Source of the DNA: Petrolisthes cinctipes
Taxonomy: Eukaryota > Arthropoda > Malacostraca > Decapoda > Porcellanidae
Assembly (NCBI GenBank): GCA_033782935.1
Contig: JAWQEG010000001.1
Coordinates: forward strand, 51,001 to 115,000
Length of the DNA stretch: 64,000 nt
Direction of reading: 5' to 3'
Part shown: piece after piece, positions 2,531 to 63,939 of the stretch
Layout of the letters: every line of letters begins with the position of its first letter
Position numbering within the stretch: the stretch's first letter is position 1
Notes under the pieces: model-generated
Told to the model about the DNA's origin: nothing
What the model saw: only the letters and a program-made list of their open reading frames with translations
The model's database searches: none
Position numbers and translations under genes: made by a program

Positions 2531-2808
2531 GGTATCTATTGAAAGAATTAATGTTTTGTAGCAGTGTTGCCAGATCCGGCTAGGTCCCAAAATTTTGCCC
2601 CGGTCACTTCCTGTACTTTACCACGGTTATTTCCCAGTAGTTTGCCCATGTTAGGTCCCGGTAGTTTGCCCAGGTTAAGTTAGGTTAGGTTACGTTAGGT
2701 TAGGTCAGGTCAGATTAGGTCAGGTCAGGTTTGGTTAGGTCAGGTTAGGTAAGGTCAGGTTAGGTAAGGTCAGGTTAGGTCAGGTCAGGTCAGGTAAGGT
2801 AAGGATAT
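2531..2808 (-). mobile_element. MITE-8 copy with telomere-like pentamer array
   Basis: Begins with the family terminal repeat GGTATCTATTGAAAGAATTA. It has the CAGTGTTGCCAGATC segment and then a run of about 135 bp of TTAGG, TCAGG and TAAGG pentamers (about 2672-2808). The second terminal repeat is absent. The mirror copy at 36510-37121 has a pentamer array of about 470 bp. Confidence 0.75.
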
Positions 2809-13317: not shown

Positions 13318-13860
13318 ATTCTCTGCAGTGTTGCCAGATCAGAGGAGGTCTTACTGTCAGTGTTGCCAGATCTATTTGGCATCATACCCTCAACTTCAAT
13401 ATCATCAGAATTTCCCTTTTTTTTTTACCTCAATAATTTTCCTGTTTACATTTACCATTATTCTTTATTATTATTTATATTTACCATTATTTTATTCTTG
13501 AAATTTCGTCTGGTAGAAATTTTACTCCTAAACAATCTTAATTAATATAATATCCCAATTGGTACTTCTAATTGTCCATACTTGGCAATACTGCTTCACT
13601 GTCAGTACGCGAGTGTTGCCAGATCCATTTGGCATTATACCCACAACTTCAACATCAGAATTTCCCTTTTTACCTCAATAATTCTCTGTTTACTCTTGAA
13701 CATTGACGGTCATTTTGGTATTTCATCATCTGGTAGAAATTACCGTGATTACTCTTAAACAATCTTTTAATATTATTATCTTTATATAATTTCCTTGTGT
13801 GGACTTCAAAACTATCTAAAAACAGATAAATTTCCCAGCACCTGGCAACACTGATTGAGT
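13318..13860. repeat. Two tandem copies of a 260-bp unit with GTGTTGCCAGATC
   Basis: Each copy starts near GTGTTGCCAGATC, TTTGGCAT and ATACCC, continues with CAACTTCAA and TTTCCCTTTTT, and has a TCTGGTAGAAATT segment. The second ends with CCTGGCAACACTG. No ORF. Also present in unit 2 and in the right arm. Confidence 0.65.
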
Positions 13861-15116
13861 GACTTGCCGAGGATTTTATTAGTCCAGGGAGAAGGATAGA
13901 TCACTCTGGGTTTATTTTGGTCCTGAGAGAAGGATAGATTACTCTGTGTTTATTTTGGTGTCATCGTTGTGGCTGGCTGTGACGGTGGCGCCTCTAGCGG
14001 CCGTGAGGAATCATCACTTTAGTTCCCGTCTGCTTCCCTTTATCGATCCTCATTAATATTTAAGACTGATTTTCTTTATTAGTAGCGCCCACGACCTTTG
14101 GTGCTAATTATATGGCTATAGAATAAATAATTATATTCATTTTGGTCAAACTACATAATGAATTACGATAATATTTACGACAAAACCCTAATATATTGTT
14201 TAAAAAAAACATATTGTACAGCCACAATCAAATATCCACCGACACTTTCCTTCCATCGTATACAGTATTACCACCTTATACAGTATACTTACAGTATACT
14301 TTAGGTATAACTATGACAATCAATTCAATCTGTACTTGGTAGCTTAAGTTGCTACTTTAATTATGTAAATATTCGCGTTTCAGTATTTTTGAAAAGCGGA
14401 ATAATGATAAGTACTTAATTATTCCATTTAAAGGTGCTGGTTCCAGTAAAAAAAATCAATCATAACCAACCAAAAACTGCAAAAAAACTCCCACCGCTCC
14501 TGTGAAAGTCAAGGAGCAGCTGTTAGTGATTCCTATCAGCCGCTAGGTGGCTCTGCTGTACCGCGACGACCAAAACTCGTATAAGAGTGGTCCGTCCTCC
14601 TACAGTAATACTAATAAAGTCCTTGTGGCTAAAGTACACTCGTGATACACAATTTCTGACCAGAGTGTGAGCAGCAGAAAGCTTCGAATCGCCTGGTATT
14701 GTTCATTTCCCCACCCAGTACACCTATAGAGGCTGAGTTCGAATGCAGGGTATGTGTGTGTGTGTGCCATTCATCTCTGGTCAGAAATTACGTATCACGA
14801 GTGTACTTGAGAATAAAAGAAACCTTGCTTGGTATATGCATTATAGGCAAATTACATAATAAATTATCCACAACCTAATATTTACGACAGATTTAAAGAT
14901 CGACCTAATTGCTAAAACATCCATACTTTAATAACATTCATGCATAATATTTAAAATGAGTAATTATAACCTGTTTCTGTAATCTACAATATTATTTGTC
15001 AATAGTATTCTGATGTAATATTTGATGAAAAGAACAGCCATTCAGATTTTATAGACCATATATACTTAAAATTACATAACAATGACCTAAAGAGTACTGT
15101 AGGCTTATATACTGTA
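13861..15116. other. No gene recognised; MITE-P end at 14219
   Basis: AT-rich DNA without supported coding sequence. A MITE-P terminal repeat (CAGCCACAATCAAATATCC, preceded by TA) starts at 14219. The inner boundary of the palindrome falls at about 14775, next to a short TG run. The same sequence is repeated in unit 2 at about 17240-18494. Confidence 0.6.
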
Positions 15117-15810: not shown

Positions 15811-18800
15811 TGTGTGCTCACTTGGTTCCTCTGATCGACTTTGGTCTGGTGGTGGCAGCGTTTCCCCATTACTGTAGAGGAGCTGGACTTGTCCTTTGTA
15901 TGATTTATTTTTGGTATTCGCAAGGCAAGTCCTGTTCCTCATCGGTATCTTGTTTTTTTTTCCAGACCAGGTTGATACAGCTATAGGATAGAGTTGTAGC
16001 ATACACTGGTTGTTTTTTTTTGTTTTGTTAAAGGCAGTAGATTTTTGTTTCCCTCCACAAGTAGAGTAAAAATAGAAAAATCAGAGAGTAACGTAAGGGG
16101 ACAAAAATAGAGCTTTTACACTTCTATAGGGCAAATGAGTAATAGGAATGAAGTGGAGCTGAAAGTACAGGCTCACCAATAGAGCCTCTTCCAGAAGATC
16201 ATCTGTAAGCATCTGTGTGGTTTGTTGGGAAGCTTTCAAACCAATACCACTGTGTTTATTGACCGTAAAATAATGAAGCCTTACAAGTGTGGTTGGTTGG
16301 GAAGCTTACAAACCAATAATACCACTGAGGAATTGACCCTAAATGGACGTTGTATAGGGTCGTGTGGTTGGTTAGGAAGCTTACAAACCAATACCACTAT
16401 GGAATCAACCCTAAAATAATGAAGCCTAATACAAGTGTGGTTGGTTGGGAAGCTTACAAACCAACACACCGAGTAGCCATCTTAGTTAGTATGACCACGA
16501 ACTAAAAAATTCACACATTTACTCTTATAACAATAATTAAGGCGTTATGCAAGAAGATCCATAGTGTATACGATGCATGGTACCGGTACGATGGCTCTGT
16601 TGTGTGTCCATAGAGCTGCACACCATCGTACCGGCACATCATCGTATTTACTATGACTGATTTTTTTTTGTTTACTTACATTCTTATCGTGTTGGATTCT
16701 CTGCAGTGTTGCCAGATCAGAGGAGGTCTTACTGTCAGTGTTGCCAGATCTATTTGGCATCATACCCTCAACTTCAATATCATCAGAATTTCCCTTTTTT
16801 TTTTACCTCAATAATTTTCCTGTTCATATTTACCATTATTCTTTATTATTATTTATATTTACCATTATTTTATTCTTGAAATTTCGTCTGGTAGAAATTT
16901 TACTCCTAAACAATCTTAATTAATATAATATCCCAATTGGTACTTCTAATTGTCCATACTTGGCAATACTGCTTCACTGTCAGTACGCGAGTGTTGCCAG
17001 ATCCATTTGGCATTATACCCACAACTTCAACATCAGAATTTCCCTTTTTACCTCAATAATTCTCTGTTTACTCTTGAACATTGACGGTCATTTTGGTATT
17101 TCATCATCTGGTAGAAATTACCGTGATTACTCTTAAACAATCTTTTAATATTATTATCTTTATATAATTTCCTTGTGTGGACTTCAAAACTATCTAAAAA
17201 CAGATAAATTTCCCAGCACCTGGCAACACTGATTGAGTGACTTGCCGAGGATTTTATTAGTCCAGGGAGAAGGATAAATCACTCTGGGTTTATTTTGGTC
17301 CTGAGAGAAGGATAGATTACTCTATGTTTATTTTGGTGTCATCGTTGTGGCTGGCTGTGACGGTGGCGCCTCTAGCGGCCGTGGGGAATCATCACTTTAG
17401 TTCCCGTCTGCTTCCCTTTATCGATCCTCATTAATATTTAAGACTGATTTTCTTTATTAGTAGCGCCCACGACCTTTGGTGCTAATTATATGGCTATAGA
17501 ATAAATAATTATATTCATTTTGGTCAAACTACATAATGAATTACGATAATATTTACGACAAAACCCTAATATATTGTTTAAAAAAAACATATTGTACAGC
17601 CACAATCAAATATCCACCGACACTTTCCTTCCATCGTATACAGTATTACCACCTTATACAGTATACTTACAGTATACTTTAGGTATAACTATGACAATCA
17701 ATTCAATCTGTACTTGGTAGCTTAAGTTGCTACTTTAATTATGTAAATATTCGCGTTTCAGTATTTTTGAAAAGCGGAATAATGATAAGTACTTAATTAT
17801 TCCATTTAAAGGTGCTGGTTCCAGTAAAAAAAATCAATCATAACCAACCAAAAACTGCAAAAAAACTCCCACCGCTCCTGTGAAAGTCAAGGAGCAGCTG
17901 TTAGTGATTCCTATCAGCCGCTAGGTGGCTCTGCTGTACCGCGACGACCAAAACTCGTATAAGAGTGGTCCGTCCTCCTACAGTAATACTAATAAAGTCC
18001 TTGTGGCTAAAGTACACTCGTGATACACAATTTCTGATCAGAGTGTGAGCAGCAGAAAGCTTCGAATCGCCTGGTATTGTTCATTTCCCCACCCAGTACA
18101 CCTATAGAGGCTGAGTTCGAATGCAGGGTATGTGTGTGTGTGTGCCATTCATCTCTGGTCAGAAATTACGTATCACGAGTGTACTTGAGAATAAAAGAAA
18201 CCTTGCTTGGTATATGCATTATAGGCAAATTACATAATAAATTATCCACAACCTAATATTTACGACAGATTTAAAGATCGACCTAATTGCTAAAACATCC
18301 ATACTTTAATAACATTCATGCATAATATTTAAAATGAGTAATTATAATCTGTTTCTGTTATCTACAATATTATTTGTCAATAGTATTCTGATGTAATATT
18401 TGATGAAAAGAACAGCCATTCAGATTTTATAGACCATATATACTTAAAATTACATAACAATGACCTAAAGAGTACTGTAGGCTTATATACTGTACAGCCA
18501 CAATCAAATATACCCCGACACTTTCCTTCCATCGTGCAAATAAATCGTCATCATATCAAAATATAATCATACAACAACACCTTACGTCAACTCAACCCCC
18601 TCAATTATTATTATAAGGTGCTGCAAAATCATACATGTGTTGTTCTTCATTACCAAGATATTTATTATTATTATTATTATTATTATGAGGTGCTGCAAAA
18701 TCATACACGTGTTGTTCTTTATTACCAAGATATTTATTATTATTATTATTATGAGGTGCTGCAAAATTAAACACATGTTGTTCTTTATTACCAAGATATT

Positions 18801-19181: not shown

Positions 19182-20520
19182 ATGGTGTTGGGGGGCCTTT
19201 GCTGAAAGGTATTGAGGCTTTTTATGCAGATGCAAAAGCATGTGTACGGGTAGAGGGTGATCTAAGTGAGAGTTTTAATATTAGTGTAGGGCTGAGACAG
19301 GGGTGTGTTATGTCACCATGGTTGTTCAATATATATATATGGATGGTTGTATGAGAGAGGTGAAAGCCAAAGTGAATGGTCTGGGGGTGAAGTTGAGGCT
19401 GAATGAAGCAAATTGGTCCCTGGTGGCAAGTTTGTTTGCGGATGACACTGTGCTGATGGCTGAGAATGAAAGGAATTTACAGAGAGTGGTGGACGAATTT
19501 CAGTCTGTGTGTAAACGAAGGAAATTGAAGGTGAATGTAGATAAAAGTAAAGTGATGGTATTTGAGAGAGCAGAAACTGAAGTGATTGACTTTGCTACAC
19601 CTTACAGAGTGGCTGTACCAACTGGGACGAAGTGTGAGATAACTCTGAGGGGCGAGAGGATGGAGGAAGTGAAGGAGTTTAAGTACCTGGGTACAGTTAT
19701 GTGTAAACATGGAAGTATGGAAGGAGAAATTAGGGAGAGAGCAGTGAAGGGTAGACAGGTCATAGGATCACTGGGAAGGATTATGAAGGGTAGAAGTGTG
19801 AGTATGGAAGTAAAAAGGGGACTACGAAATAGTATAATCCTGCCAACACTGACATATGCGTCGGAGACATGGACATGGAGTAGGGCGCATCAGTCTAGAA
19901 TAGGTGCTGTGGAAATGAGTTACTTGAGAGGAGCATGTGGACTTACTAGATGGGATGGAGAAAGTAATGAGAGTGTGTATGAGAGATGTGGTATGAGTGA
20001 GAAGGCAATTGGCATTGAGTGTGGAGTGGTTGAGAGAGTGAAACGTGATACATTGAGATGGTTTGGACATGTAGAGAGAATGCAAGGCGAGGAGTTTGTA
20101 AAGAAGGTGTATGGAAGTGAAGTTGTAGGACCTGGTGTGAGAGGCAGACCTCCGGTCAGATGGCAGAACAGAGTGGAAGAGTATGTAAAGGAGAGAAACG
20201 TGAGGGGTAGAGTAGGGATGGACCAAGTAAGGAGGGAGTGTTGGAACAGGGAGAACTGGAGACACTTCTGCCGTGGCCACCCCCTTGGGGGGAGTTCCCG
20301 GAGGGAGTGAGGCGTCAGAGCTATAGATAGATAGATAGATATTTATTATTATTATTATTATTATTATGAGGTGCAGTAAAATTAAACACATGTTGTTCTT
20401 TATTACCAAGATATTTATTATTATTATGAGGTGCTGCAAAATCATACACGTGTTGTTCTTTATTACCAAGATATTTACTACGATGGAAGGAAAGTGTTGG
20501 TGGATATTTGATTGTGGCTG
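18495..20520. mobile_element. MITE-P carrying a nested LINE-B
   Basis: Terminal repeats CAGCCACAATCAAATATAC (left, after TA at 18493-18494) and TTGATTGTGGCTG (right, before TA at 20521-20522). Between them are the ATT-expanded MITE-P interior, the LINE-B (18808-20345), then more interior units. A complete small MITE-P without LINE is seen at 46839-47051 (213 bp). Confidence 0.85.
18808..20345 (+). pseudogene. LINE-B reverse transcriptase to 3' end, one frameshift
   Basis: Non-LTR retrotransposon RT. Frame 1 (18818-19354) has WRRAIIVPLYKGKG, MDLEKAYDRVDR (motif A) and GLRQGCVMSPWLFNIYI (motif B). A frameshift near 19330-19345 moves to a frame open to 20310, with LFADDTVLMAE (motif C; FADD at 19435-19446), KSKVMVFE, FKYLGTVM, LRNSIILPTLTYASETW, TLRWFGHVERM and GRPPVRWQNRVEEY. 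The coding end lies within about 15 bp of a TAGATAGATAGA tail, so the 3' UTR is minimal. Short 3' UTRs with microsatellite tails are known from RTE-type LINEs; the clade is inference. The 5' half (endonuclease) is absent. Confidence 0.88.
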
Positions 20521-27008: not shown

Positions 27009-27165
27009 GGTGGTAATTCTTTTTTGATACATCGGAGTGCCTTGATTCCTCCAAAGTATGCTAGGAAACAGGACCACAAGAGCAAAAATAATAGTTTTCT
27101 GTTGCTTGGAATAGTTTGGAGGATTCAGTTGCTCCAGATTTACCAACACAAAACTTCCCCCTTAA
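27009..27165. mobile_element. TTAA-flanked fold-back insertion, right arm only
   Basis: TTAA at 27005-27008 and 27162-27165 brackets about 153 bp. The left arm has the single uninterrupted site (AGCTTAAGTTGC near 14345). The interior is partly self-complementary (GATTCCTCCAAA against TTTGGAGGATTC). The start of a related sequence appears at 63945-64000. TTAA duplication is known for piggyBac and Kolobok-type elements; which family is unclear. Confidence 0.8.
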
Positions 27166-28557
27166 GCTACCAAGTACAGATTGAATTGATTGTCATAGTT
27201 ATACCTAAAGTATACTGTAAGTATACTGTATAAGGTGGTAATACTGTATACGATGGAAGGAAAGTGTCGGTGGATATTTGATTGTGGCTGTACAATATGT
27301 TTTTTTTAAACAATATATTAGGGTTTTGTCGTAAATATTATCGTAATTCATTATGTAGTTTGACCAAAATGAATATAATTATTTATTCTATAGCCATATA
27401 ATTAGCACCAAAGGTCGTGGGCGCTACTAATAAAGAAAATCAGTCTTAAATATTAATGAGGATCGATAAAGGGAAGCAGACGGGAACTAAAGTGATGATT
27501 CCCCACGGCCGCTAGAGGCGCCACCGTCACAGCCAGCCACAACGATGACACCAAAATAAACATAGAGTAATCTATCCTTCTCTCAGGACCAAAATAAACC
27601 CAGAGTGATCTATCCTTCTCCCTGGACTAATAAAATCCTCGGCAAGTCACTCAATCAGTGTTGCCAGGTGCTGGGAAATTTATCTGTTTTTAGATAGTTT
27701 TGAAGTCCACACAAGGAAATTATATAAAGATAATAATATTAAAAGATTGTTTAAGAGTAATCAGGGTAATTTCTACCAGATGATGAAATACCAAAATGAC
27801 CGTCAATGTTCAAGAGTAAACAGAGAATTATTGAGGTAAAAAGGGAAATTCTGATGATATTGAAGTTGAGGGTATGATGCCAAATAGATCTGGCAACACT
27901 GACAGTAAGACCTCCTCTGATCTGGCAACACTGCAGATAATCTAACATGATAAGAATGTAAGTAAACAAAAAAAAATCAGTCATAGTAAATACGATGATG
28001 TGCCGGTACGATGGTGTGCGGCTCTATGGACACACAACAGAGCCATCGTACCGGTACCATGCATCGTATACACTATGGATCTTCTTGCATAACGCCTTAA
28101 TTATTGTTATAAGAGTAAATGTGTGAATTTTTTAGTTCGTGGTCATACTAACTAAGATGGCTACTCGGTGTGTTGGTTTGTAAGCTTCCCAACCAACCAC
28201 ACTTGTATTAGGCTTCATTATTTTAGAGTTGATTCCATAGTGGTATTGGTTTGTAAGCTTCCTAACCAGCCACACGACCCTATACAACGTCCATTTAGGG
28301 TCAATTCCTCAGTGGTATTATTGGTTTGTAAGCTTCCCAACCAACCACACTTGTAAGGCTTCATTATTTTACGGTCAATAAACACAGTGGTATTGGTTTG
28401 TAAGCTTCCCAACAAACCACACAGATGCTTACAGATGATCTTCTGGAAGAGGCTCTATTGGTGAGCCTGTACTTTCAGCTCTACTTCATTCCTATTACTC
28501 ATTTGCCCTATAGAAGTATTTTTGTTCTTGATTGTCCCAAAACTTATCTAATTGTTT

Positions 28558-36255: not shown

Positions 36256-36509
36256 GAGCTTCCTCCTCTACTTGTTTACATCTGTTATCCCCTTCCTCCT
36301 TCAGTCATGTTTCATTAATCAGCTGATCCTGGGATGGTAACTTCTTCCTTTGTTTTAGTCCACTTCTTGTTGCTGTAGACACTTTTTTCTCCAGAGTCAG
36401 TCTTATACTTCTTAGGTTCTTATATTTGCTTTATACAACTTACCACCATTCAACTATATTTCAAACTCATTAATAATTGAAACAAAGATAGAGCCAACCA
36501 ATTCATATC

Positions 36510-37121
36510 CTTACCTAACCTGACCTGACCTGACCTAACCTAACCTGACCTTACCTGACCTGACCTTACCTAACCTGACCTTACCTAACCTGACCTGACC
36601 TGACCTAACCTGACCTAACCTTACCTTACCTGACCTTACCTAACCTGACCTTACCTAACCTGACCTTACCTAACCTAACCTGACCTGACCTAACCAAACC
36701 TGACCTGACCTAACCAAACCTGACCTGACCTGACCTGACCTAACCAAACCTGACCTGACCTGACCTGACCTAACCTGACCTTACCTAACCTGACCTGACC
36801 TGACCTAACCTGACCTTACCTAACCTGACCTTACCTAACCTGACCTAACCTGACCTGACCTAACCTAACCAAACCTGACCTGACCTAATCCGACCTGACC
36901 TAACCTAACCTAACCTGACCTAACCTAACCAAACCTGACCTGACCTAATCCGACCTAACCTAACCTAACCTAACCTAACCTGGGCAAACTACCGGGACCT
37001 AACATGGGCAAACTACTGGGAAATAACCGTGGTAAAGTACAGGAAATGACCGGGGCAAAATTTAGGACCTAGCCGGATCTGGCAACACTGCTACAAAACA
37101 TTAATTCTTTCAATAGATACC
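36510..37121 (+). mobile_element. MITE-8 with expanded CCTAA/CCTGA array
   Basis: Roughly 470 bp of pure pentamer units CCTAA, CCTGA and CCTTA with occasional CCAAA (36510-36984). The family core follows (GGGCAAACTACCGGG, CCGGATCTGGCAACACTG), ending in the terminal repeat at 37100-37121. The left-arm partner has only about 135 bp of array. A CT microsatellite follows at 37143-37188. Confidence 0.85.
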
Positions 37122-50940: not shown

Positions 50941-51240
50941 CACTATATTGTGTATTTTAGTATCATTACCCACTATTTTGGACCATTCTAAAACACTTTT
51001 ATGCTATGGTGTTTCTTTCGGAGATGCCCCGTTTTCGAGATATGCCCCGTTTTACAAACATAATTTGGAAATTAGTCTGACCTGACCTGACCTGACCTAA
51101 CCTAACCTAGACAACATCAGACTACCGGTACCTAACCTGGGCAAACTACCGGGATATAACCGGTGTAAACTATCATAAAGTGACTGGGGCAAATTCCCAG
51201 GACCTAGCCGGATGTGGTAACACTGAGCGATCCTAGCCAA
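50941..51240 (+). mobile_element. MITE-8 related, second subfamily
   Basis: TTTCGGAGATGCCCCGTTTTC, a CCTGACC/CCTAACC run, CCGGTACCTAACCTGGGC and GGATGTGGTAACACTGAG. Terminal repeats are not recognisable. Confidence 0.65.
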
Positions 51241-52675: not shown

Positions 52676-52761
52676 TATATTAATTATGGTGTTTATATAT
52701 TACTTTATATCTGGTTATAAGGATACAGTCTCGTATGTTTGTTTAACAGGAATAAATCTCA

Positions 52762-52895
52762 GGCCCATATTCAGAAACATTCGTGGTGTATACGATGGTG
52801 TGGTACTGGTACGATGGCTCTGTTTGTGTGTCTATGGAGTCGTCGTACCGGTACCACACCATCCTATTCACCATGGATGTTCTTGAATATGGCCC
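52762..52895. mobile_element. Fold-back MITE, 134 bp
   Basis: Ends GGCCCATATTCAGAAACAT and its near complement. Almost the whole element pairs with itself through TATACGATGGTGTGGTAC and GTACCACACCATCCTATTC around a short loop. The same family lies at 63694-63818 and, partial, at 13171. Confidence 0.8.
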
Positions 52896-52963
52896 TTTAT
52901 ACCATGTCCTTTCTAGTTTTGGGGACATATTTATTCACTTTTCATGTATGATATAATTATTGG

Positions 52964-53319: not shown

Positions 53320-53462
53320 GCCTCCTACACTCCAGATGATGACGAACATTACCGAGGTGACTTTGGTGCTGGCAATGAAGTGGGTTCCTTCCCTAAAGAC
53401 CACATCACACAATTATCTCCACCGGATCAGAAACCAAAAATTCTCCTTATGGGACTACGTAG
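53320..53462 (+). CDS. RRAGC: RagC/RagD GTPase, first visible coding exon
   Basis: Rag GTPases of the C/D class pair with RagA/B on the lysosome and recruit TORC1 when amino acids are present. This exon follows an acceptor (ATCTTACAG) and ends at AG|GTAATA, phase 2. It reads ASYTPDDDEHYRGDFGAG, VGSFPKDHITQLSPPDQ and KPKILLMGLRR, that is the acidic N-terminal tail and the first strand leading into the P-loop. SFPKD and the PxILLMGLRR stretch are RagC/D signatures. No start codon lies in frame inside the exon, so one or more upstream exons carry the 5' UTR and initiator; I could not find them. Intron 1 (53463-55724) holds a LINE-B. Confidence 0.88.
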
Positions 53463-53619
53463 GTAATAATTATGATATGTCATATGTATATCATTACTCT
53501 ATGGTAATGCTGTATAAATTATAGTCAAGGTCCTGAATATTATGTATAAATTACAGTACAGTATTATAAATATTGTATGTACCGTACTATATAGTGTATA
53601 ATTATAAAGTGGCTGCTCA

Positions 53620-54640
53620 ATATATTCTGTATATGGATGGTTGTATGAGAGAGATGAAGGACAAAGTGAATGGCCTGGGGGTGAAGTTGAGGCTGAATGA
53701 AGCAAATTGGTCCTTGGTGGCAAGTTTATTTGCGGATGACACTGTGTTGATGGCTGAGAGTGAAAGGGAGGTACAGAGAGTGGTGGACGAATTTCAGTCT
53801 GTGTGTAAACGAAAGAAACTGAAGGTGAATGTTAGTAAAAGTAAAGTGATGGTATTTGAGAGAGCAGAAACTGAAGTGATTGACTTTGCTACACCTTACA
53901 GAGTGGGAGTACCAACTGGGACCAAGTGTGAGTTAACTCTGAGGGGTGAGAGGATGGAGGAAGTGAAGGAGTTTAAGTACCTGGGTACAGTTATGTGTAA
54001 ACATGGAAGTATGGAAGTAGAAATTAGGGAGAGGGCAATGAGGGGTAGACAGGTCATAGGATCACTGGTCAGGATTATGAAGGGTAGAAGTGTGAGTATG
54101 GAAGTGAAAAGGGGACTACGAAATAGTATAATCCTGCCAACACTGACATATGCGTCGGAGACATGGACATGGAGTAGGGCTCATCAGTCTAAAATAGGTG
54201 CTGTGGAAATGAGTTACTTGAGAGGAGCATGTGGGTTGTCTAGGTGGGATGGAGAAAGTAATAAGAGTGTGTATGAGAGATGTGGTATGAGTGAGAAGGC
54301 AATTGGTATTGAGTGTGGAGTGGTTGAGAGAGTGAAGCGTAATACACTGAAGTGGTTTGGACATGTAGAGAGAATGCAAGGTGAGGAGTTTGTAAAGAAG
54401 GTGTATGGAAGTAAAGTTGTGGGACCTGGTGTGAGAGGCAGACCACCGGTTAGATGGCAGAACAGAGTGGAAGAGTATGTAAGGGAGAGAAACGTGAGGG
54501 GTAGAGGAGGATATGACCAAGTAAGAAGGGAGTGTTGGAACAGGGAAAACTGGAGACACTTCTGCCGTGGCCTTCCCCTTGGGAGGAGTTCCCGAAGGGA
54601 ATGAGGCATCAGAGCTATAGATAGATATATAGTTTATTTA
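53620..54640 (+). pseudogene. LINE-B in RagC/D intron 1, open RT C-terminal half
   Basis: 5'-truncated, sense to the host gene. One frame is open from 53573 to 54604 (about 330 codons of element), with LFADDTVLMAE, KSKVMVFE, FKYLGTVMCKHGSM, TLKWFGHVERM and GRPPVRWQNRVEEY, then the TAGA tail near 54617. It is the best-preserved LINE-B 3' half in the window, without frameshifts, suggesting a recent insertion. It lacks the N-terminal RT motifs. Confidence 0.88.
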
Positions 54641-55724: not shown

Positions 55725-55956
55725 GAGTGGCAAGTCTTCAATACAAAAAGTTGTTTTCCACAAAATGACACCAAAAAAACCCCTTTCTTTGGAGTCAACA
55801 AACAAGATAGAGTCTGAAAACATCTCCAACTCTTCCTTTGTACAGTTCAAGATTTTGGACTTCCCAGGTCAGATTGACTTCTTTGAAAAACCATCCTTTG
55901 ACTCAGTGAAAATATTTGGTGGACATGGAGCTCTGGTGTTTGTTATTGATGCTCAA
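55725..55956 (+). CDS. RRAGC: RagC/RagD GTPase exon 2 (P-loop end, switch regions)
   Basis: Acceptor TTTATTACAG, donor CAA|GTGAGT. With the AG carried from exon 1 it reads [15 protein letters not shown] (P-loop Gly-Lys-Ser), [31 protein letters not shown] (G3) and [13 protein letters not shown]. Phase closes exactly (1 + 231 bases). Two oddities: the family's nearly invariant WDFPGQ has Leu for Trp, and one extra residue sits after DFFE (EKPSFDS). The segment before LESTNKI is also diverged. These could mean a fast-evolving or relaxed copy. Confidence 0.9.
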
Positions 55957-55960
55957 GTGA

Positions 55961-55961
55961 G

Positions 55962-55993
<32 letters not shown>

Positions 55994-56015
55994 CCTCAAG
56001 CTGTCTGGCCGAGTT
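55961..56015 (-). mobile_element. LINE-C 3' tail fragment four bases from a splice donor
   Basis: A GTT run (AAC tail on the minus strand) then TTCCTCAAGCTGTCTGGCC, the last 25 or so coding bases of LINE-C. It begins immediately after the GTGA of the intron 2 donor. Confidence 0.7.
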
Positions 56016-57176: not shown

Positions 57177-60100
57177 AAAATAACCACCGACACTTTCCTT
57201 CCATCGTGCAAATAGATCTAGGGTGGGATCTTCAAAGCATCGTAACCGCAGTTATGATTCTCGTAGTGCCATATTTGCTCGTAAGTTGTTCATAACCGCT
57301 ACGATCGTATCTTCAAAGCCTCGTAAGGGAGTTTCCGTCCGCCATTATGCGCCATATTTGCTCGTAGCGCTACGAGAACTGAAAAGCACCCTTTAGGCTG
57401 ATAGCAGGGTCGCGTAGTCGATAAACAACCCGTAAATAGTGAGATTTGAGTTTATTTACACTTGGCGCGGCCGACACAGGCGACATAATGGTTGTTGTTG
57501 TTGTCACTTATCGGTAAATATAAACAAGAGGAGGGGATTCAGTGAGCAGCTTAGGAGAATGGAGCTGCAAGTGTCAATTTAAACTGATGCACTGTGAAAT
57601 AGAAAGTTACAAATACTTTTTTTGTGTATCATTACTTTTGGAGTGTTTAAGAATAATAGGATATAATGGTGACTTACTAATTGCAGGAAAGTGGCTTCCA
57701 GTTACCTGCAAACAAAGCAGAAATTCTTCATTGCATAGTTAGACCTAACTTAATCCCTGTAGTATGAGTCTTTAATCCATAGTCCTTTGCATGAAGTGGA
57801 TATTCTTAAGGTTAATAAACTTTCTTTATGATTGATTGACTTTCTAATGAAAATATTACAAGCACATTAATGTGATGTGTGAGCTGGTAACATTTAAATA
57901 ACTGGAATTATATACCTACTGATATATACTGGAGATGTGTAAAAGGTTGACCATATTCCCGAATCTAAAGACAAAAATATGTCTCAGAATTAACAAATGC
58001 AAATATTATCATGTTGTAAAAGTCTCAATAACATGTACCGTACATGAACCTTTCCTACCAATTCAATTAATTTTATTGAACAGTATAATTTAATACATAA
58101 TTTTCACCTGTTCTCATATTACATAAGATTTGTATTTTTCTAAAATAAATGCTTTTCAACAGCATATAACAAATATGTGACTGGTATTGGTTTTTCTAAA
58201 TGTTTTAATTATAGACTATAAAAAAACCTACATTTTATTTACATATGACACCTGTAAAGTTTACAGAAATCCATGATACCTCCCTAGCTATTTATACTAT
58301 TAGTTTCCTGCATTATCACAGTTCATTACATTATATATACCTGAGTAAAAACCTGCAAATTTATGATATTGGAAAGCTGTTTGAACTCATGTACTTTCCA
58401 ACAATGACTGAAAACAAAAAAACACCAGTTCCTTAATGACTACAGTACTTGTTTGGCACTCTTCACATTGCTAGGACATATCACAAATATGGCAGAGAAA
58501 TTATTAAAATACAATAAGATTAAAGCCACAGTACGGCATAAGTATATCCTTATAGTTAATCTTCGAACCTTGATATGTAAATAAAACTAAGACATTAATA
58601 TTATTAGCCAAAGATAAGAATGCATGAAAAAAAAGTTGATTTTACTCAAAGAATAATAAATCTAACATGAAATGTGAATGTTAAAAGCTATATTTGAAAG
58701 ACAAAATATATAATGAAAATAAATAATGTAATTTTTTTAAAAACATAAGCAGAAGTTAACAATAATTTAGATTGAAACCTACACACAAACCACACAACTA
58801 AAAACATACTTGCACACTAATAACTCTGTCACAAAATATAACCCAACTTAAACCACACTAATCATTAAAAAAAAAAATCACACACACACAACAAAACACA
58901 CTTGAAAACAAATCACCTTTTCTCGATAGCCTTTTTAATGTTCACCAAAGTTTCTGATATTGTGGCTATATTTTCTGCAAAATCCATCAAAATATCCCTT
59001 ATAGTCTTATGGACAACTAGTATATCTGGAGCTAGTGTAGCTTCCAGATGAGCTGTCACACCTCCAGCTGACCTAGAGGAAGGGCGACTTGAGGCTAAAG
59101 AGCTGTGGTACGAATGCTCCTCACTTGGTGGTAGGTTTTACCAGCTTCGGCAAGCTGTCGCCAGTCAAAACTTCACAGTCTTCCACTGTAACTGGCCCGA
59201 AGTCCTGCCAACTTGGCCCAGGTCTAGGTGAAGGGGCCCTTGATGGCAGTCCTGGGTCATCCACATCACCTTATTATGAAATTATGAAAATTAGCAACTT
59301 TCATATAATTTTAGAGAAATATTAAGGATTATCGTTATGAATTAAAATTGTAAAGTCACTCTTAAAGAAAGCAGTATATAATTAGTCATACATATAAGTA
59401 CAGCAGCAGTACTGCAATTTTTACTTGGTTAAAGTACTCATATGATACATATGGAATCTAACAAAGCATCACAAATTTAGTTTTGATTAACATGGCTCCA
59501 ATTTTTTCGACTACATGAACTGCTAACAGGAGTTATTTATATGATATGCAAAATGTATAAATCACTACGTACTTGACTCCTGTATATTGGGTCATCACTG
59601 TACATGTACCGTATTTACTGAAGGTATGGATATATCAGAACATCTTGTATATTTGTTCCTAGGACTAAGGCCTTCTGATTTGCACTGTTTAACTTTGAAT
59701 GGAATTGAGAGGTAATGCTGCTCAAAATGTATGTTTTATATATATAAACTCTCAATGTAATTACTTCACATAGTGCCAATGAGGGAAGATTTCCATATTA
59801 CTAGCCTAGATGAACAGCAGGATATTTTTTACTGTTATATACTGTACATACTGCCTGGGTCTTGGAGTCCACAGAAATACCCGACACTTGCACTTCTTTA
59901 ATGACTTGAGCCATAGCCTCTTCTATGTGGGTGAATGTCTTTGTGTCACTAGTGTCACCACCTGAAATATAACGAAAAATGGTACATAATTCAATAACAA
60001 AGCAGAACCAAGCAGAATAAATTACAATACCTGCTGGTTATCGTATTAAAATGGTACTGTATCTAAATCAGGCAATGGACACTCCCCCCCCCCCCCATCC

Positions 60101-61157
60101 TTCAACCCATGTGTGCCCATGCCAACAGCCGAATCCACAATATAAATAATGCTTATATAATTTATTTCCTTGATCTGTCTTTCAATAAAACTGTTTGAAG
60201 TCTTAGTTATTATATTGCACTTGCCAGATTTCACTACATATGGTATTTTTCAGCCTGTTACTTGGTAATGGCAATCAACTGTACAGATTTTGAGATTAAT
60301 ATAGAAACTACTGTAGGTAGGTGTACAGGAAATAAAACAGTGACAGTAGAAGTTAAAATAATATAATGTCCTCCCAGTCAATGTCTTTGATTTATTTTCA
60401 TGACAACCAGCTACCAGTAAACTATTTGTATCATGCTGTTCTTGATTTACAGTACGTAACCTAACCTATCTTAAACTAAACTAGCCAAACCTAACCTAAC
60501 CAAAAATCTATATACAATATACCAGTGATTGGCGTGATATTAAAAATATACCCGGGGGGGGCAGCTGCCTTATCTCCACTATTGTGTTAAATGTTTATCA
60601 ACAAAGTATAATAATTCACTTACCTGTCTTTTGCTGTTAATTCCTGTCTGATGTAACTTGGTGACTGTGTCATCTCTATCAGCTGATGGTGAGACAATGT
60701 TTATTTGTTGACATTGTAATACTACGTTATGATTGGCTTACAGTACCAAGGACATATTGTTTCCTTCATTGTGATTGGCTGAGAGCCAGTCAGCTGGGTG
60801 GCGGGATGAACAAAACACACGGAACGAAACGGGCAGCGACGCTCGCTACGAGGCTATCATCGTGAGCTACGAGGGAGGTTATGAAGCTTTGGAGATACCA
60901 ACTTATGATCCTCGTAAGCCACGATCAAATATGGCGGCTACGAGATAGTAAAGGTGATCGTAGCGCCACCAACTTACGATGCTTTGAAGATCCCACCCCA
61001 GTATCATATCAAAATACAATCATACAAAACCTTATGTCAACTCAACCCCCTCAATTATTATTATGAGGTGCAGCAAAATCATACACGAGTTGTTCTTTAT
61101 TACCAAGATATTTACAACGATGGAAGGAAAATGTCGTCGGTTATTTCATTGTGACTG
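57177..61157. mobile_element. MITE-P copy split by the large TIR element
   Basis: Left end CAGTCACAATAAAATAACC (after TA), right end ATTTCATTGTGACTG (before TA at 61158-61159). The MITE interior (CATATCAAAATACAATCATA, CAAGATATTTAC) lies at 61003-61115. The large TIR element copy B sits between them. Confidence 0.8.
57221..60998. mobile_element. Large TIR element, copy B (3.8 kb)
   Basis: Same ends as copy A (GGGTGGGATCTTCAAAGC at both termini). It lacks MITE-8: the site at about 60156-60170 is empty, so it is the ancestral form for that position. Flanks are CTA and CAG, so no exact 3-bp duplication is left here. The minus-strand exon-like blocks at about 58910-59268 and 59850-59960 are present with their own stops. 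Confidence 0.8.
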
Positions 61158-61197: not shown

Positions 61198-61375
61198 GTT
61201 GACTACATGGAAGCACTGAACAGACTCCACCAGACAGTTCTAAGAGCACACAAAGTCAACCCACACCTCAAGTTTGAAGTTTTTATACACAAAGTGGACG
61301 GCCTCTCTGATGACATCAAGTTTGAAACACAACGAGACATTCACCAACGTGCCAATGATAAACTTAGTAATTCAG
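61198..61375 (+). CDS. RRAGC: RagC/RagD GTPase exon 3
   Basis: Acceptor GTATATCAG, donor TCAG|GTAAGG, phase 1. Reads [39 protein letters not shown] and [24 protein letters not shown] is the Rag equivalent of the NKxD guanine-specificity motif, and QRDIHQRA is strongly conserved in the family. In frame with exon 2 (phase 0). The acceptor lies only about 40 bp downstream of the MITE-P end. Confidence 0.92.
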
Positions 61376-61464
61376 GTAAGGAATGTGTTTATTCGATGAT
61401 TAACCTTTATGTTATCTTTGAAGACGTGATGAGTGAGGCGATACGACTTTTGCCGCCGACTGTA

Positions 61465-61675
61465 CAGCCGAGCCCGAAAATTCGCGACCAAGTACTTAGA
61501 TATTTATGCCATTTGAGCTGATAATATTTATTTGGGGAGGAATCAGAGTAGGTGGAACATAGTAAAGGGACATGATACAATCTTTCACCTACAATGACAC
61601 CTTCCCCACACAGTGTTACCAGCTCAGATGACATAAACATCTAAGTACGTGGTCGCGAATTTTCGGGCTCGGCTG
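61465..61675. mobile_element. TA-flanked MITE, 211 bp, in RagC/D intron 3
   Basis: Terminal repeats CAGCCGAGCCCGAAAATTC continuing to about 45 bp, with TA at 61463-61464 and 61676-61677. Almost perfect arms suggest a young copy. It occupies half of the intron. Confidence 0.88.
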
Positions 61676-61781
61676 TACCTCCAGTCATAATTATAAGAGT
61701 CTGGTTCCAGTATGCTGTAGCCAAAATTGTTGTCCTTTCATAATTATTCATTTAGCCAATAATAATTTGTTTATATTTCAG

Positions 61782-62072
61782 GTATGGAACAAATCCACCT
61801 CAGCTTCTACTTAAGGACCCTGTGATCGTGTATGAAAATTGGAGGTTTCTAAATTCTCCTGATTATGCCACGAAACAAGCTCCTTCCAAATAGGTTTGTG
61901 TGTTTCGTGGCAATATTTGAAGGACTCGCTAACCTCCATTTTTCTGATTACATCACAGGGTCCCTTAACATCCATCTATGACCACAGTATATTTGAGGCC
62001 TTCAGTAAAGTTGTCCAGAAATTGATACCTCAGCTGCCCACACTTGAAAACCTATTAAATATCTTCATATCT
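61782..62072 (+). CDS. RRAGC: RagC/RagD GTPase exon 4, split by a 150-bp insertion
   Basis: Acceptor TATATTTCAG, donor TCT|GTGAGT. The reading begins [11 protein letters not shown] (61782-61813), is broken by 61815-61968, and resumes as [18 protein letters not shown] and [16 protein letters not shown]. Leaving out 154 bp (one TTAA plus the element) gives 46 codons in exact phase with both neighbours and restores [10 protein letters not shown], an almost invariant Rag segment. As assembled, translation would hit TGA at 61823-61825, just after the insertion point. So this allele or copy is disrupted unless the insert is spliced out. The G-domain end and the link to the roadblock C-terminal domain would be lost. 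Confidence 0.9.
61815..61964. mobile_element. 150-bp TTAA-flanked fold-back element inside RagC/D exon 4
   Basis: TTAA at 61811-61814 and 61965-61968. Terminal repeats are GGACCCTGTGAT / ATCACAGGGTCCC. Further inner arms pair: TGGAGGTT (61840) with AACCTCCA (61931), and GCCACGAAACA (61867) with TGTTTCGTGGC (61901), so the element forms a long hairpin. TTAA duplication fits piggyBac-type or Kolobok-type mobilisation. No coding capacity. Confidence 0.92.
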
Positions 62073-62085
62073 GTGAGTTTATATT

Positions 62086-62420
62086 TGTTGTTGTTGTTGA
62101 AGTTCCTCAAGCTGTCTGGCCGAGCAGCCCCGAGCTCCTGAGGAAGGTCATGGCCTGAACCGGGTTTTCCCACAGTGCCCTCAGAGAGTGTATGTTGTGT
62201 TGTTGGTGAGTGTGGTTGTGTGTGTTGCAGTGTTCAATAATGTGTTTAATAGAATGGGGTGTTGTGTTGTGTTGTTGGTGAGTGTGGTTGTGTGTGTTGC
62301 AGTCTTCAATAATGTGTTTAATAGAATGGGGTGCTGTGTTGTGTTGTTGGTGAGTGTGTTGCAGTCTTTAATAATGTGTTTAATAGAATGGGGTGCTGTG
62401 TTGCATCCCGGACAGTTGTG
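62086..62420 (-). pseudogene. LINE-C C-terminal fragment in RagC/D intron 4
   Basis: The GTT tail starts 13 bp after the exon 4 donor. The minus-strand reading gives LRALWESPVQAM-like sequence and three tandem units of the TPHSIKHII-type segment, here encoded as ATPHPIKHI/TPFYINTL variants in mixed frames. It ends near GCATCCCGGACAG (CPGC region) at about 62415. Confidence 0.7.
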
Positions 62421-63048: not shown

Positions 63049-63195
63049 AACTCGTGTATAGAGAAGGCGTTCCTGTTTGATGTTTTATCCAAGATCTACA
63101 TTGCCACCGACTCCTCACCCGTAGACATGCAAAGCTATGAGTTGTGTTGCAAGATGATTAATGTTGTCATTGATATCTCGGACATATATGGGTAC
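63049..63195 (+). CDS. RRAGC: RagC/RagD GTPase exon 5 (roadblock domain start)
   Basis: Acceptor TTTTTTCCAG. Reads [38 protein letters not shown] and [10 protein letters not shown], the beginning of the C-terminal roadblock dimerisation domain. Very close to the family pattern, which argues that purifying selection acted here until recently. The donor is either G|GTACGT (exon end 63191) or TAC|GTAAGG (63195); the sequence alone does not decide. The remaining exons lie beyond the window. Confidence 0.92.
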
Positions 63196-63660: not shown

Positions 63661-63693
63661 TGTGTTGTAAGGCCTATGTGTGTGTCAGATAAT

Positions 63694-63818
63694 GGGTGGT
63701 ATGCAAGAATATTCACGGTGTACTGTATACGATGGTGTGGTACCGATACGAAGGCTCCATAGACAAAACAACAGAGCCACACCATCGTATACACCATGGA
63801 TGTCCTTGCATACGACCC
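63694..63818. mobile_element. Fold-back MITE, 125 bp
   Basis: GGGTGGTATGCAAGAATAT pairs with GTCCTTGCATACGACCC, and TATACGATGGTGTGGTACC with CCACACCATCGTATACACC. Same family as 52762-52895. Confidence 0.8.
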
Positions 63819-63939
63819 AGTGTTAGACCTTTCTTGTACAGTCAACAAAAAAGTACAGGAACCAACCTTACATGGAAATTAAATCAAATTATCCATAGGA
63901 AGGTTCCAATATTCTTTTTGCCGACTGTACTTGGGAAAC

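What the first reader, a model, noticed from the sequence alone, without database searches (positions are those of the whole stretch)
61782..62072. RagC/D coding exon disrupted by a TTAA fold-back element at an exactly reconstructible site
Exon 4 of an otherwise well-conserved TORC1-pathway GTPase contains 150 bp with terminal repeats, internal hairpin arms and TTAA on both sides. Dropping 154 bp restores the conserved [10 protein letters not shown] segment and gives 46 codons matching both flanking phases. As written, the frame ends at 61823-61825. Either this is a segregating null allele, a non-essential duplicate gene, or the insert is removed from the RNA.
Basis: partly seen in the sequence, partly recalled or inferred. 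Interest (0 to 1): 0.93.

Follow-up and report, generated by a model that had tools for sequence, protein, structure and literature searches.

The report
Transposon-split RagC pseudogene in many copies
In what appears to be a porcelain crab genome, a tiny transposon sits inside an exon of a RagC gene copy, but that copy is one of more than a hundred decaying relatives, and uninterrupted RagC genes lie elsewhere in the genome.

Summary
In detail: exon 61782-62072 of a RagC/D gene holds a 150-bp fold-back element (61815-61964) between TTAA repeats, with an in-frame TGA at 61823-61825. The element is a piggyBac-type (TTAA) MITE: the genome, by size and kin Petrolisthes cinctipes, has 100 places with perfect GGGACCCTGTGAT ends, 38 with TTAA on both sides. 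The alarming reading fails. An uninterrupted RagC lies on contig C2438, matching P. manimaculis RagC. A second, old paralogue (dS 0.78, dN 0.035 from the first) has clean exons A-E and an empty site on C6789. The window copy derives from that paralogue and has lost constraint (14 replacement against 2 silent differences). It belongs to a dispersed family: 107 exon-B rows, 121 exon-F rows, 88 empty sites. All 25 MITE-bearing copies whose flanks I read (of 40 scored) share one site. So one MITE insertion happened in one member and was copied along. It is not a null allele of an essential gene, and none of 18 possible in-frame introns removes it cleanly. The surprise is the amplification of an intron-bearing RagC segment; its vehicle is unknown.

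The parts
53320..53462 (+). RagC exon A (codes ASYTPDDDEHYRG...LLMGLR), with a 10-codon in-frame deletion against intact RagC
   Evidence: deletion absent from L050
55725..55956 (+). RagC exon B (P-loop, switch regions), with one extra Lys codon and NETLF changed to KKPLS
   Evidence: Pfam PF04670
57218..60999 (.). about 3.8 kb inside the B-C intron that is missing at this place from the seven paralogous copies compared
   Evidence: L002-L008 go from window 57218 straight to 60999
61198..61375 (+). RagC exon C
61782..62072 (+). RagC exon D, interrupted by the MITE
61811..61814 (.). TTAA target-site duplication, 5' copy
61815..61964 (.). 150-bp TTAA-type MITE; ends (G)GGACCCTGTGAT / ATCACAGGGTCCC; arms 61815-61877 and 61901-61963
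61823..61825 (+). in-frame TGA stop created by the insert
61965..61968 (.). TTAA target-site duplication, 3' copy
63049..63191 (+). RagC exon E; later exons were not found in the window

Best explanation
A short non-autonomous TTAA-specific (piggyBac-type) transposon inserted once into exon D of one member of a multi-copy family of RagC pseudogenes and was then copied along with it. Proposed order of events: (1) An old duplication, probably in the line leading to Petrolisthes, gave a second RagC gene (RagC2) that stayed under strong purifying selection. (2) A RagC2-bearing segment, introns included, lost constraint (10-codon deletion, extra Lys, many replacement changes) and spread to more than 100 places. 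(3) The MITE jumped into exon D of one copy, duplicating TTAA. (4) That version spread further; the window holds one such copy. Shown: the site, the copies, the clean genes and the loss of constraint. Inferred: the order of the steps and the vehicle of the spread. RagC1 on another contig presumably does the TORC1 work; expression was not tested. A transcript of the window copy would stop inside the G domain and would probably be destroyed by nonsense-mediated decay (inference).
For: Insert anatomy. MITE family: 100 places with both perfect ends, control 0; 38 of the 100 with TTAA on both sides, control 0. RagC1 on C2438: exons A-E and the two later exons found, exon D uninterrupted; it is the best hit of the genome search, 99%. 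RagC2: on C6789 clean exons A-E and an empty exon-D site; on C6129, of which I fetched 3 kb, clean exons B and C and an empty site. Selection (Nei-Gojobori, exons A, B, C, E): L050 against RagC1 dS 0.776, dN 0.035; window against L050 2 silent and 14 replacement differences plus 13 gapped codons. Among 6-7 paralogous copies per exon I hand-counted 16 distinct replacement changes (one a stop), 5 silent changes and 2 single-base deletions. Same site in 25 of 25 flanks read, the window's own included, out of 40 scored MITE matches and 2442 first-look candidates; 23 of the 25 show both MITE ends letter for letter. Empty sites: 88 places, each with 0 or 1 mismatch, control 0. Exon B: 109 match rows, 107 without RagC1. 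Exon F: 122 of 150 rows by hand count, 121 without RagC1.
Against: The indels in the window copy other than the MITE are in frame (10 codons, 1 codon) and its splice sites are intact, so some copies may have been coding until recently. None of the listed exon-B rows and few of the exon-F rows hold stops. Substitutions of the window copy against P0001 fall on the invariant columns less often than random change would (12 of 17, P = 0.016), so part of its history was under constraint. The number of filled sites genome-wide was not obtained. The relative-rate test is significant only against some relatives and outgroups (P 0.0005 to 0.80).
Confidence: 0.93

Rival explanations
1. A segregating or fixed null allele of the crab's working RagC gene: the window is the true locus and the MITE inactivates it on one haplotype.
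For: Splice sites and most of the frame are intact; the insertion breaks the frame exactly.
Against: An uninterrupted RagC matching P. manimaculis lies on C2438. The window copy is about 0.77 synonymous changes per site away from it, far too much for alleles. The same filled site is present at 24 further places.
Confidence: 0.02
2. The insert acts as an intron (introner-like), so the gene still works.
For: The right end carries a fair acceptor-like sequence (TTCTGATTACATCACAG, score 3.4 against 2.8-8.8 for the real acceptors).
Against: No in-frame stop-free pair uses that acceptor, and joining exon C to it runs into a stop. 18 in-frame options exist; 0 of 18 restores the native protein. The copy shows no constraint since RagC2.
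Confidence: 0.02
3. The copy is a working, fast-evolving extra RagC whose insert is an assembly error.
For: In-frame indels and intact splice sites; RagC2 was long under selection.
Against: The insert is seen at 24 further contig places, and the published assembly that fits this genome was made from HiFi reads (PMC10849366, abstract and passages). Replacement differences outnumber silent ones 14 to 2 since RagC2.
Confidence: 0.03

Closest known systems
piggyBac-type (TTAA) miniature inverted-repeat transposable elements
   Same: Short, no open frame, inverted ends, TTAA duplication, 100 places with perfect ends in the genome.
   Different: The ends read GGGACCCTGTGAT. No autonomous partner or transposase was sought, so membership of the piggyBac superfamily rests on target site and structure alone.
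RagC/RagD (Gtr2-type) GTPases of the TORC1 pathway
   Same: Exons B and C match Pfam PF04670 and human RagC/RagD chains; exon order is that of RagC1.
   Different: Decayed copy: stop inside the G domain, 10-codon deletion, extra codon after the DFPGQ motif, changed residue at the position of human T90 (numbering; T90N is a lymphoma mutation, PMC11237164 passages).
Amplified dispersed pseudogene families (segmental duplications, ampliconic or B-chromosome gene copies; recalled)
   Same: Intron-bearing copies, about 94-99% identical in their larger pieces, on many contigs.
   Different: No chromosome assignment and no vehicle identified. The source is an old, long-conserved paralogue, not the main RagC.
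Introners (transposon-derived introns; PMC9860276, seen as a search listing with the start of its abstract)
   Same: A TIR element dropped into a coding exon with a target-site duplication.
   Different: No splice pair removes it and keeps the protein.

Membership tests
piggyBac-type MITE | TTAA target-site duplication | tested here: met
   at this site; 38 of 100 genome places with perfect ends have TTAA on both sides, control 0; the flanks of the other 62 were not read
piggyBac-type MITE | terminal inverted repeats shared by the family | tested here: met
   13-bp GGGACCCTGTGAT ends, one G lost on the left here
piggyBac-type MITE | short, non-coding, multi-copy | tested here: met
   150 bp, stops in the three forward frames read; 100 places, some of them duplicates of one another
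piggyBac-type MITE | moved by a piggyBac-family transposase | not tested
   no search for an autonomous partner was made
RagC/RagD GTPase | Gtr1/RagA G domain, RagC-type sequence | tested here: met
   PF04670 above cut-off for exons B and C; best PDB matches are RagC/RagD
RagC/RagD GTPase | complete open reading frame through the C-terminal domain | tested here: not met
   TGA at 61823-61825
Pseudogene family | loss of purifying selection and multiple dispersed copies | tested here: met
   14 replacement to 2 silent against RagC2; 16 to 5 among copies (hand count); 107 exon-B and 121 exon-F rows
Introner / spliced insert | splice pair that removes the insert and keeps the protein | tested here: not met
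   0 of 18 in-frame candidates restores the native sequence

The most novel reading that the evidence does not exclude
A large selfish DNA unit of porcelain crabs took up an old, selectively maintained second RagC gene with its introns and multiplied it to well over a hundred places in one species, so that a TORC1 amino-acid-sensing GTPase travels as cargo. Some MITE-free copies might still make protein or act on RagC dosage. The crab would then be a place to ask whether a selfish unit can carry a nutrient-sensing gene.
Probability: 0.15. Interest if true: 0.7.

Novelty: new member of a known kind. Interest (0 to 1): 0.42.

Why it matters
The insert itself is ordinary: a MITE in a pseudogene. 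What may matter is the setting. A long-conserved second RagC gene has given rise to more than 100 intron-bearing copies. In the paper whose assembly size fits this genome, the authors report more repeats and more duplicated BUSCO genes in P. cinctipes than in P. manimaculis (PMC10849366, abstract and passages); whether P. manimaculis has this family was not tested. Filled and empty copies of one site (25 filled read, 88 empty counted) also give a natural clock for the order of gene amplification and transposon insertion. A gene finder or an expression study that takes the window locus as 'the' RagC would be misled.

Tried and rejected
Rejected: null allele, spliced insert and assembly error, for the reasons under rival explanations. 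A 3-bp TTA duplication (Tourist-like element, a recalled name) fitted the arm axis better than TTAA (44 against 23 of 63 arm positions), but was set aside after 38 of 100 family members showed TTAA on both sides of symmetric GGG ends. A lost start codon in exon A was considered and dropped: the TTA before exon A lies in a splice acceptor.

Led nowhere: Rfam on the window, 0 matches. TIR patterns in viral contigs, 0 matches each (these were not expected to hold crab DNA). Paper searches for a MITE or piggyBac in decapods and for RagC pseudogenes listed nothing on this locus (titles and starts of abstracts seen). Relative-rate tests before the genome was reachable pointed the right way but were significant only against some relatives. 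The first splice script used three wrong exon edges and is superseded. In one search the two empty-site copies show a one-column gap at the edge of the missing MITE, which I take as an alignment shift, not a deletion; in the same call one of them (L045) aligns badly in the B-C intron (43 of 187 positions differ), probably because the stretch I cut out begins outside the homologous part.

Counts and what was left out: 25 of 40 scored MITE matches had their flanks read (8 loci returned, 17 fetched). One search compared nine copies with the window; exon comparisons cover 6 copies for exons A and E and 7 for B and C. Row counts and the changes were counted by hand. The 107 exon-B and 121 exon-F rows include RagC2 and, for exon B, the window's own copy. 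The 88 empty sites include the two RagC2 places. Of the 100 MITE places several are printed with identical interiors and look like duplicates of one another, so 100 is not the number of insertions. All genome counts are lower bounds by the tool's own statement.

Full report
What is there. The window holds five exons of a RagC/D-type GTPase gene on the + strand: A 53320-53462, B 55725-55956, C 61198-61375, D 61782-62072, E 63049-63191, each with AG before and GT after. Exons B and C match Pfam Gtr1_RagA above its cut-off, and the best PDB matches are human RagC and RagD. Exon D carries 150 bp at 61815-61964 between two TTAA copies. The reading frame ends at TGA 61823-61825; leaving out 154 bp gives back the [10 protein letters not shown] segment. 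The fold-back structure is far from chance (z -7.4).

Whose genome. The best named RagC matches are decapods at about 92% identity: Procambarus clarkii, Petrolisthes manimaculis, Macrobrachium, Palaemon. A reverse-transcriptase frame elsewhere in the window is 96% identical to a Petrolisthes cinctipes protein. The genome search reports 1,484,209,624 bases in 9,385 contigs. The published P. cinctipes assembly has 1.49 Gb in 9,391 contigs, made from HiFi reads (PMC10849366, abstract, outline and passages). I take the window to be P. cinctipes; the genome itself is unnamed, so this is inference.

The element is a TTAA-type MITE. In the same genome the pattern GGGACCCTGTGAT-N108..138-ATCACAGGGTCCC occurs at 100 places (reversed control 0), and the interiors printed resemble the window insert; some places are duplicates of one another. 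Of the 100, 38 have TTAA directly on both sides (control 0). That bears on a real ambiguity. Within this one copy the arms are symmetric about a 151-bp element with a TTA duplication (44 of 63 arm positions, against 23 of 63 for the TTAA register), because the left end has lost one G. TTAA is the target preference of piggyBac-type elements (recalled). I did not look for an autonomous partner.

It cannot be spliced out cleanly. Listing every GT-AG, GC-AG and AT-AC pair of at least 30 nt inside exon D gives 18 in-frame, stop-free options; 0 of 18 restores the native protein. The best-scoring one replaces the start of the exon with element sequence. The fair acceptor at the element's right end is used by none of them, and joining exon C straight to it runs into a stop. 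Skipping exon D shifts the frame and stops.

The gene copy is not the working RagC. Before the genome was reachable, the copy already looked unconstrained. It departs at 13 of 209 columns that are invariant in its six closest RagC relatives (five named malacostracans and one unnamed metagenome protein), the extra Lys among them. When the six were left out in turn they departed at 0, 2, 0, 0, 7 and 5 columns. The relative-rate test was significant against some relatives and outgroups only (P from 0.0005 to 0.80), and the 17 substitutions against P0001 avoid the invariant columns slightly (12 of 17, P 0.016), which speaks for an earlier constrained phase. One window change falls on the position of human T90 (numbering), a residue changed in follicular lymphoma (PMC11237164, passages); the seven other exon-B copies compared do not carry that change.

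Then the genome answered. A search with the P. manimaculis RagC gave a 99% match on contig C2438 and, below it, about a hundred matches at 89-97%. The C2438 stretch holds seven RagC exons; four align at 100% protein identity and the other three are identical apart from the stretches where the alignment runs into intron or across a split codon. Exon D is uninterrupted. I call it RagC1. Two further places carry a second gene, RagC2, with no extra Lys. On C6789 exons A-E are clean, the 10 deleted codons are present and the exon-D site is empty. On C6129 I fetched 3 kb only: exons B and C are clean, and the empty site and an exon F are found by search. The C6789 stretch matches the window at about 92-98% in its larger unique pieces, introns included. 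Over exons A, B, C and E, RagC2 against RagC1 has dS 0.776 and dN 0.035: an old duplicate long kept under selection. The window against RagC2 has 2 silent and 14 replacement differences plus 13 gapped codons: selection has gone. A tree puts the window with RagC2 (100/99) and the pair beside P. manimaculis RagC (86/88), with a tip length of 0.064 for the window and 0.001 for RagC2.

The copy is one of many. Searching with the window MITE gave 40 scored matches, all over the full 154 bases, out of 2,442 first-look candidates, which may include MITEs elsewhere. I read the flanks of 25 of the 40, the window's own included; all 25 are the same RagC exon-D site, and 23 show both element ends letter for letter. 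Exon B gave 109 match rows, 107 without RagC1. The last exons gave 150 rows, of which I count 122 for exon F, 121 without RagC1. The empty exon-D site occurs at 88 places, each with 0 or 1 mismatch (control 0). These are lower bounds. Two empty sites lie in inverted second copies on contigs that also carry a filled copy (C3282 and C456). On C1495 about 20 kb match the window in the same order, with gaps, from 36.6 to 63.1 kb, at about 94-99% identity. In the seven paralogous copies compared, the 3.8 kb at 57218-60999 of the window is absent from this place. Among 6-7 paralogous copies per exon I count 16 distinct replacement changes (one a stop), 5 silent changes and 2 single-base deletions. 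That is close to the roughly 3 to 1 expected without selection (recalled rule).

Reading. One MITE jumped into one copy of an already multiplying, unconstrained RagC2-derived segment, and that version then multiplied too. Shown: the site, the family, the uninterrupted genes, the loss of constraint. Inferred: the order of decay and spread, decay of any message, and what carries the segment.

Worth. As a finding about a broken TORC1 gene it is ordinary. As a lead, the multiplication of an old, conserved, intron-bearing RagC paralogue to over a hundred places is unusual enough for a closer look. I score interest 0.42 and rate it a new member of a known kind.

Noticed in passing
window 42-39705: A large inverted repeat: arms of nearly 20 kb, 97-100% complementary in most of the longer pieces listed, with extra tandem copies inside the left arm (13653-14348 and 17031-17726 both pair with 27161-27856).
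   Followed up: partly
window 61462-61678: A second fold-back element (103-nt arms, 82% complementary, 11-nt loop) in the intron just before exon D; also present in the seven paralogous copies compared.
   Followed up: partly
window 63684-63828 and 52761-52896: Two fold-back elements that share sequence (arms 39 and 60 nt) near the RagC exons.
   Followed up: no
window 55956-56013 and 62072-62150: The same repeat (GTT run followed by CCTCAAGCTGTCTGGCCGAG) begins a few bases after the splice donors of exons B and D.
   Followed up: partly
window 2672-2804, 36509-36982, 51077-51108: Degenerate telomere-like 5-bp arrays and a 24-bp ACTACCGGGACCTAACCTGGGCAA-type repeat recur across the window.
   Followed up: no
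window 19285-20307, 53570-54604: Frames of a LINE-like reverse transcriptase; the first is 96% identical to a P. cinctipes protein. The second, alike to the eye, lies in the intron between RagC exons A and B.
   Followed up: partly
alignment A1, position of human W115: The six closest RagC proteins aligned (five of them named malacostracans) have ILDFPGQ where human RagC/RagD has IWDFPGQ: a natural W-to-L change beside switch II. The W115 number is by count.
   Followed up: no
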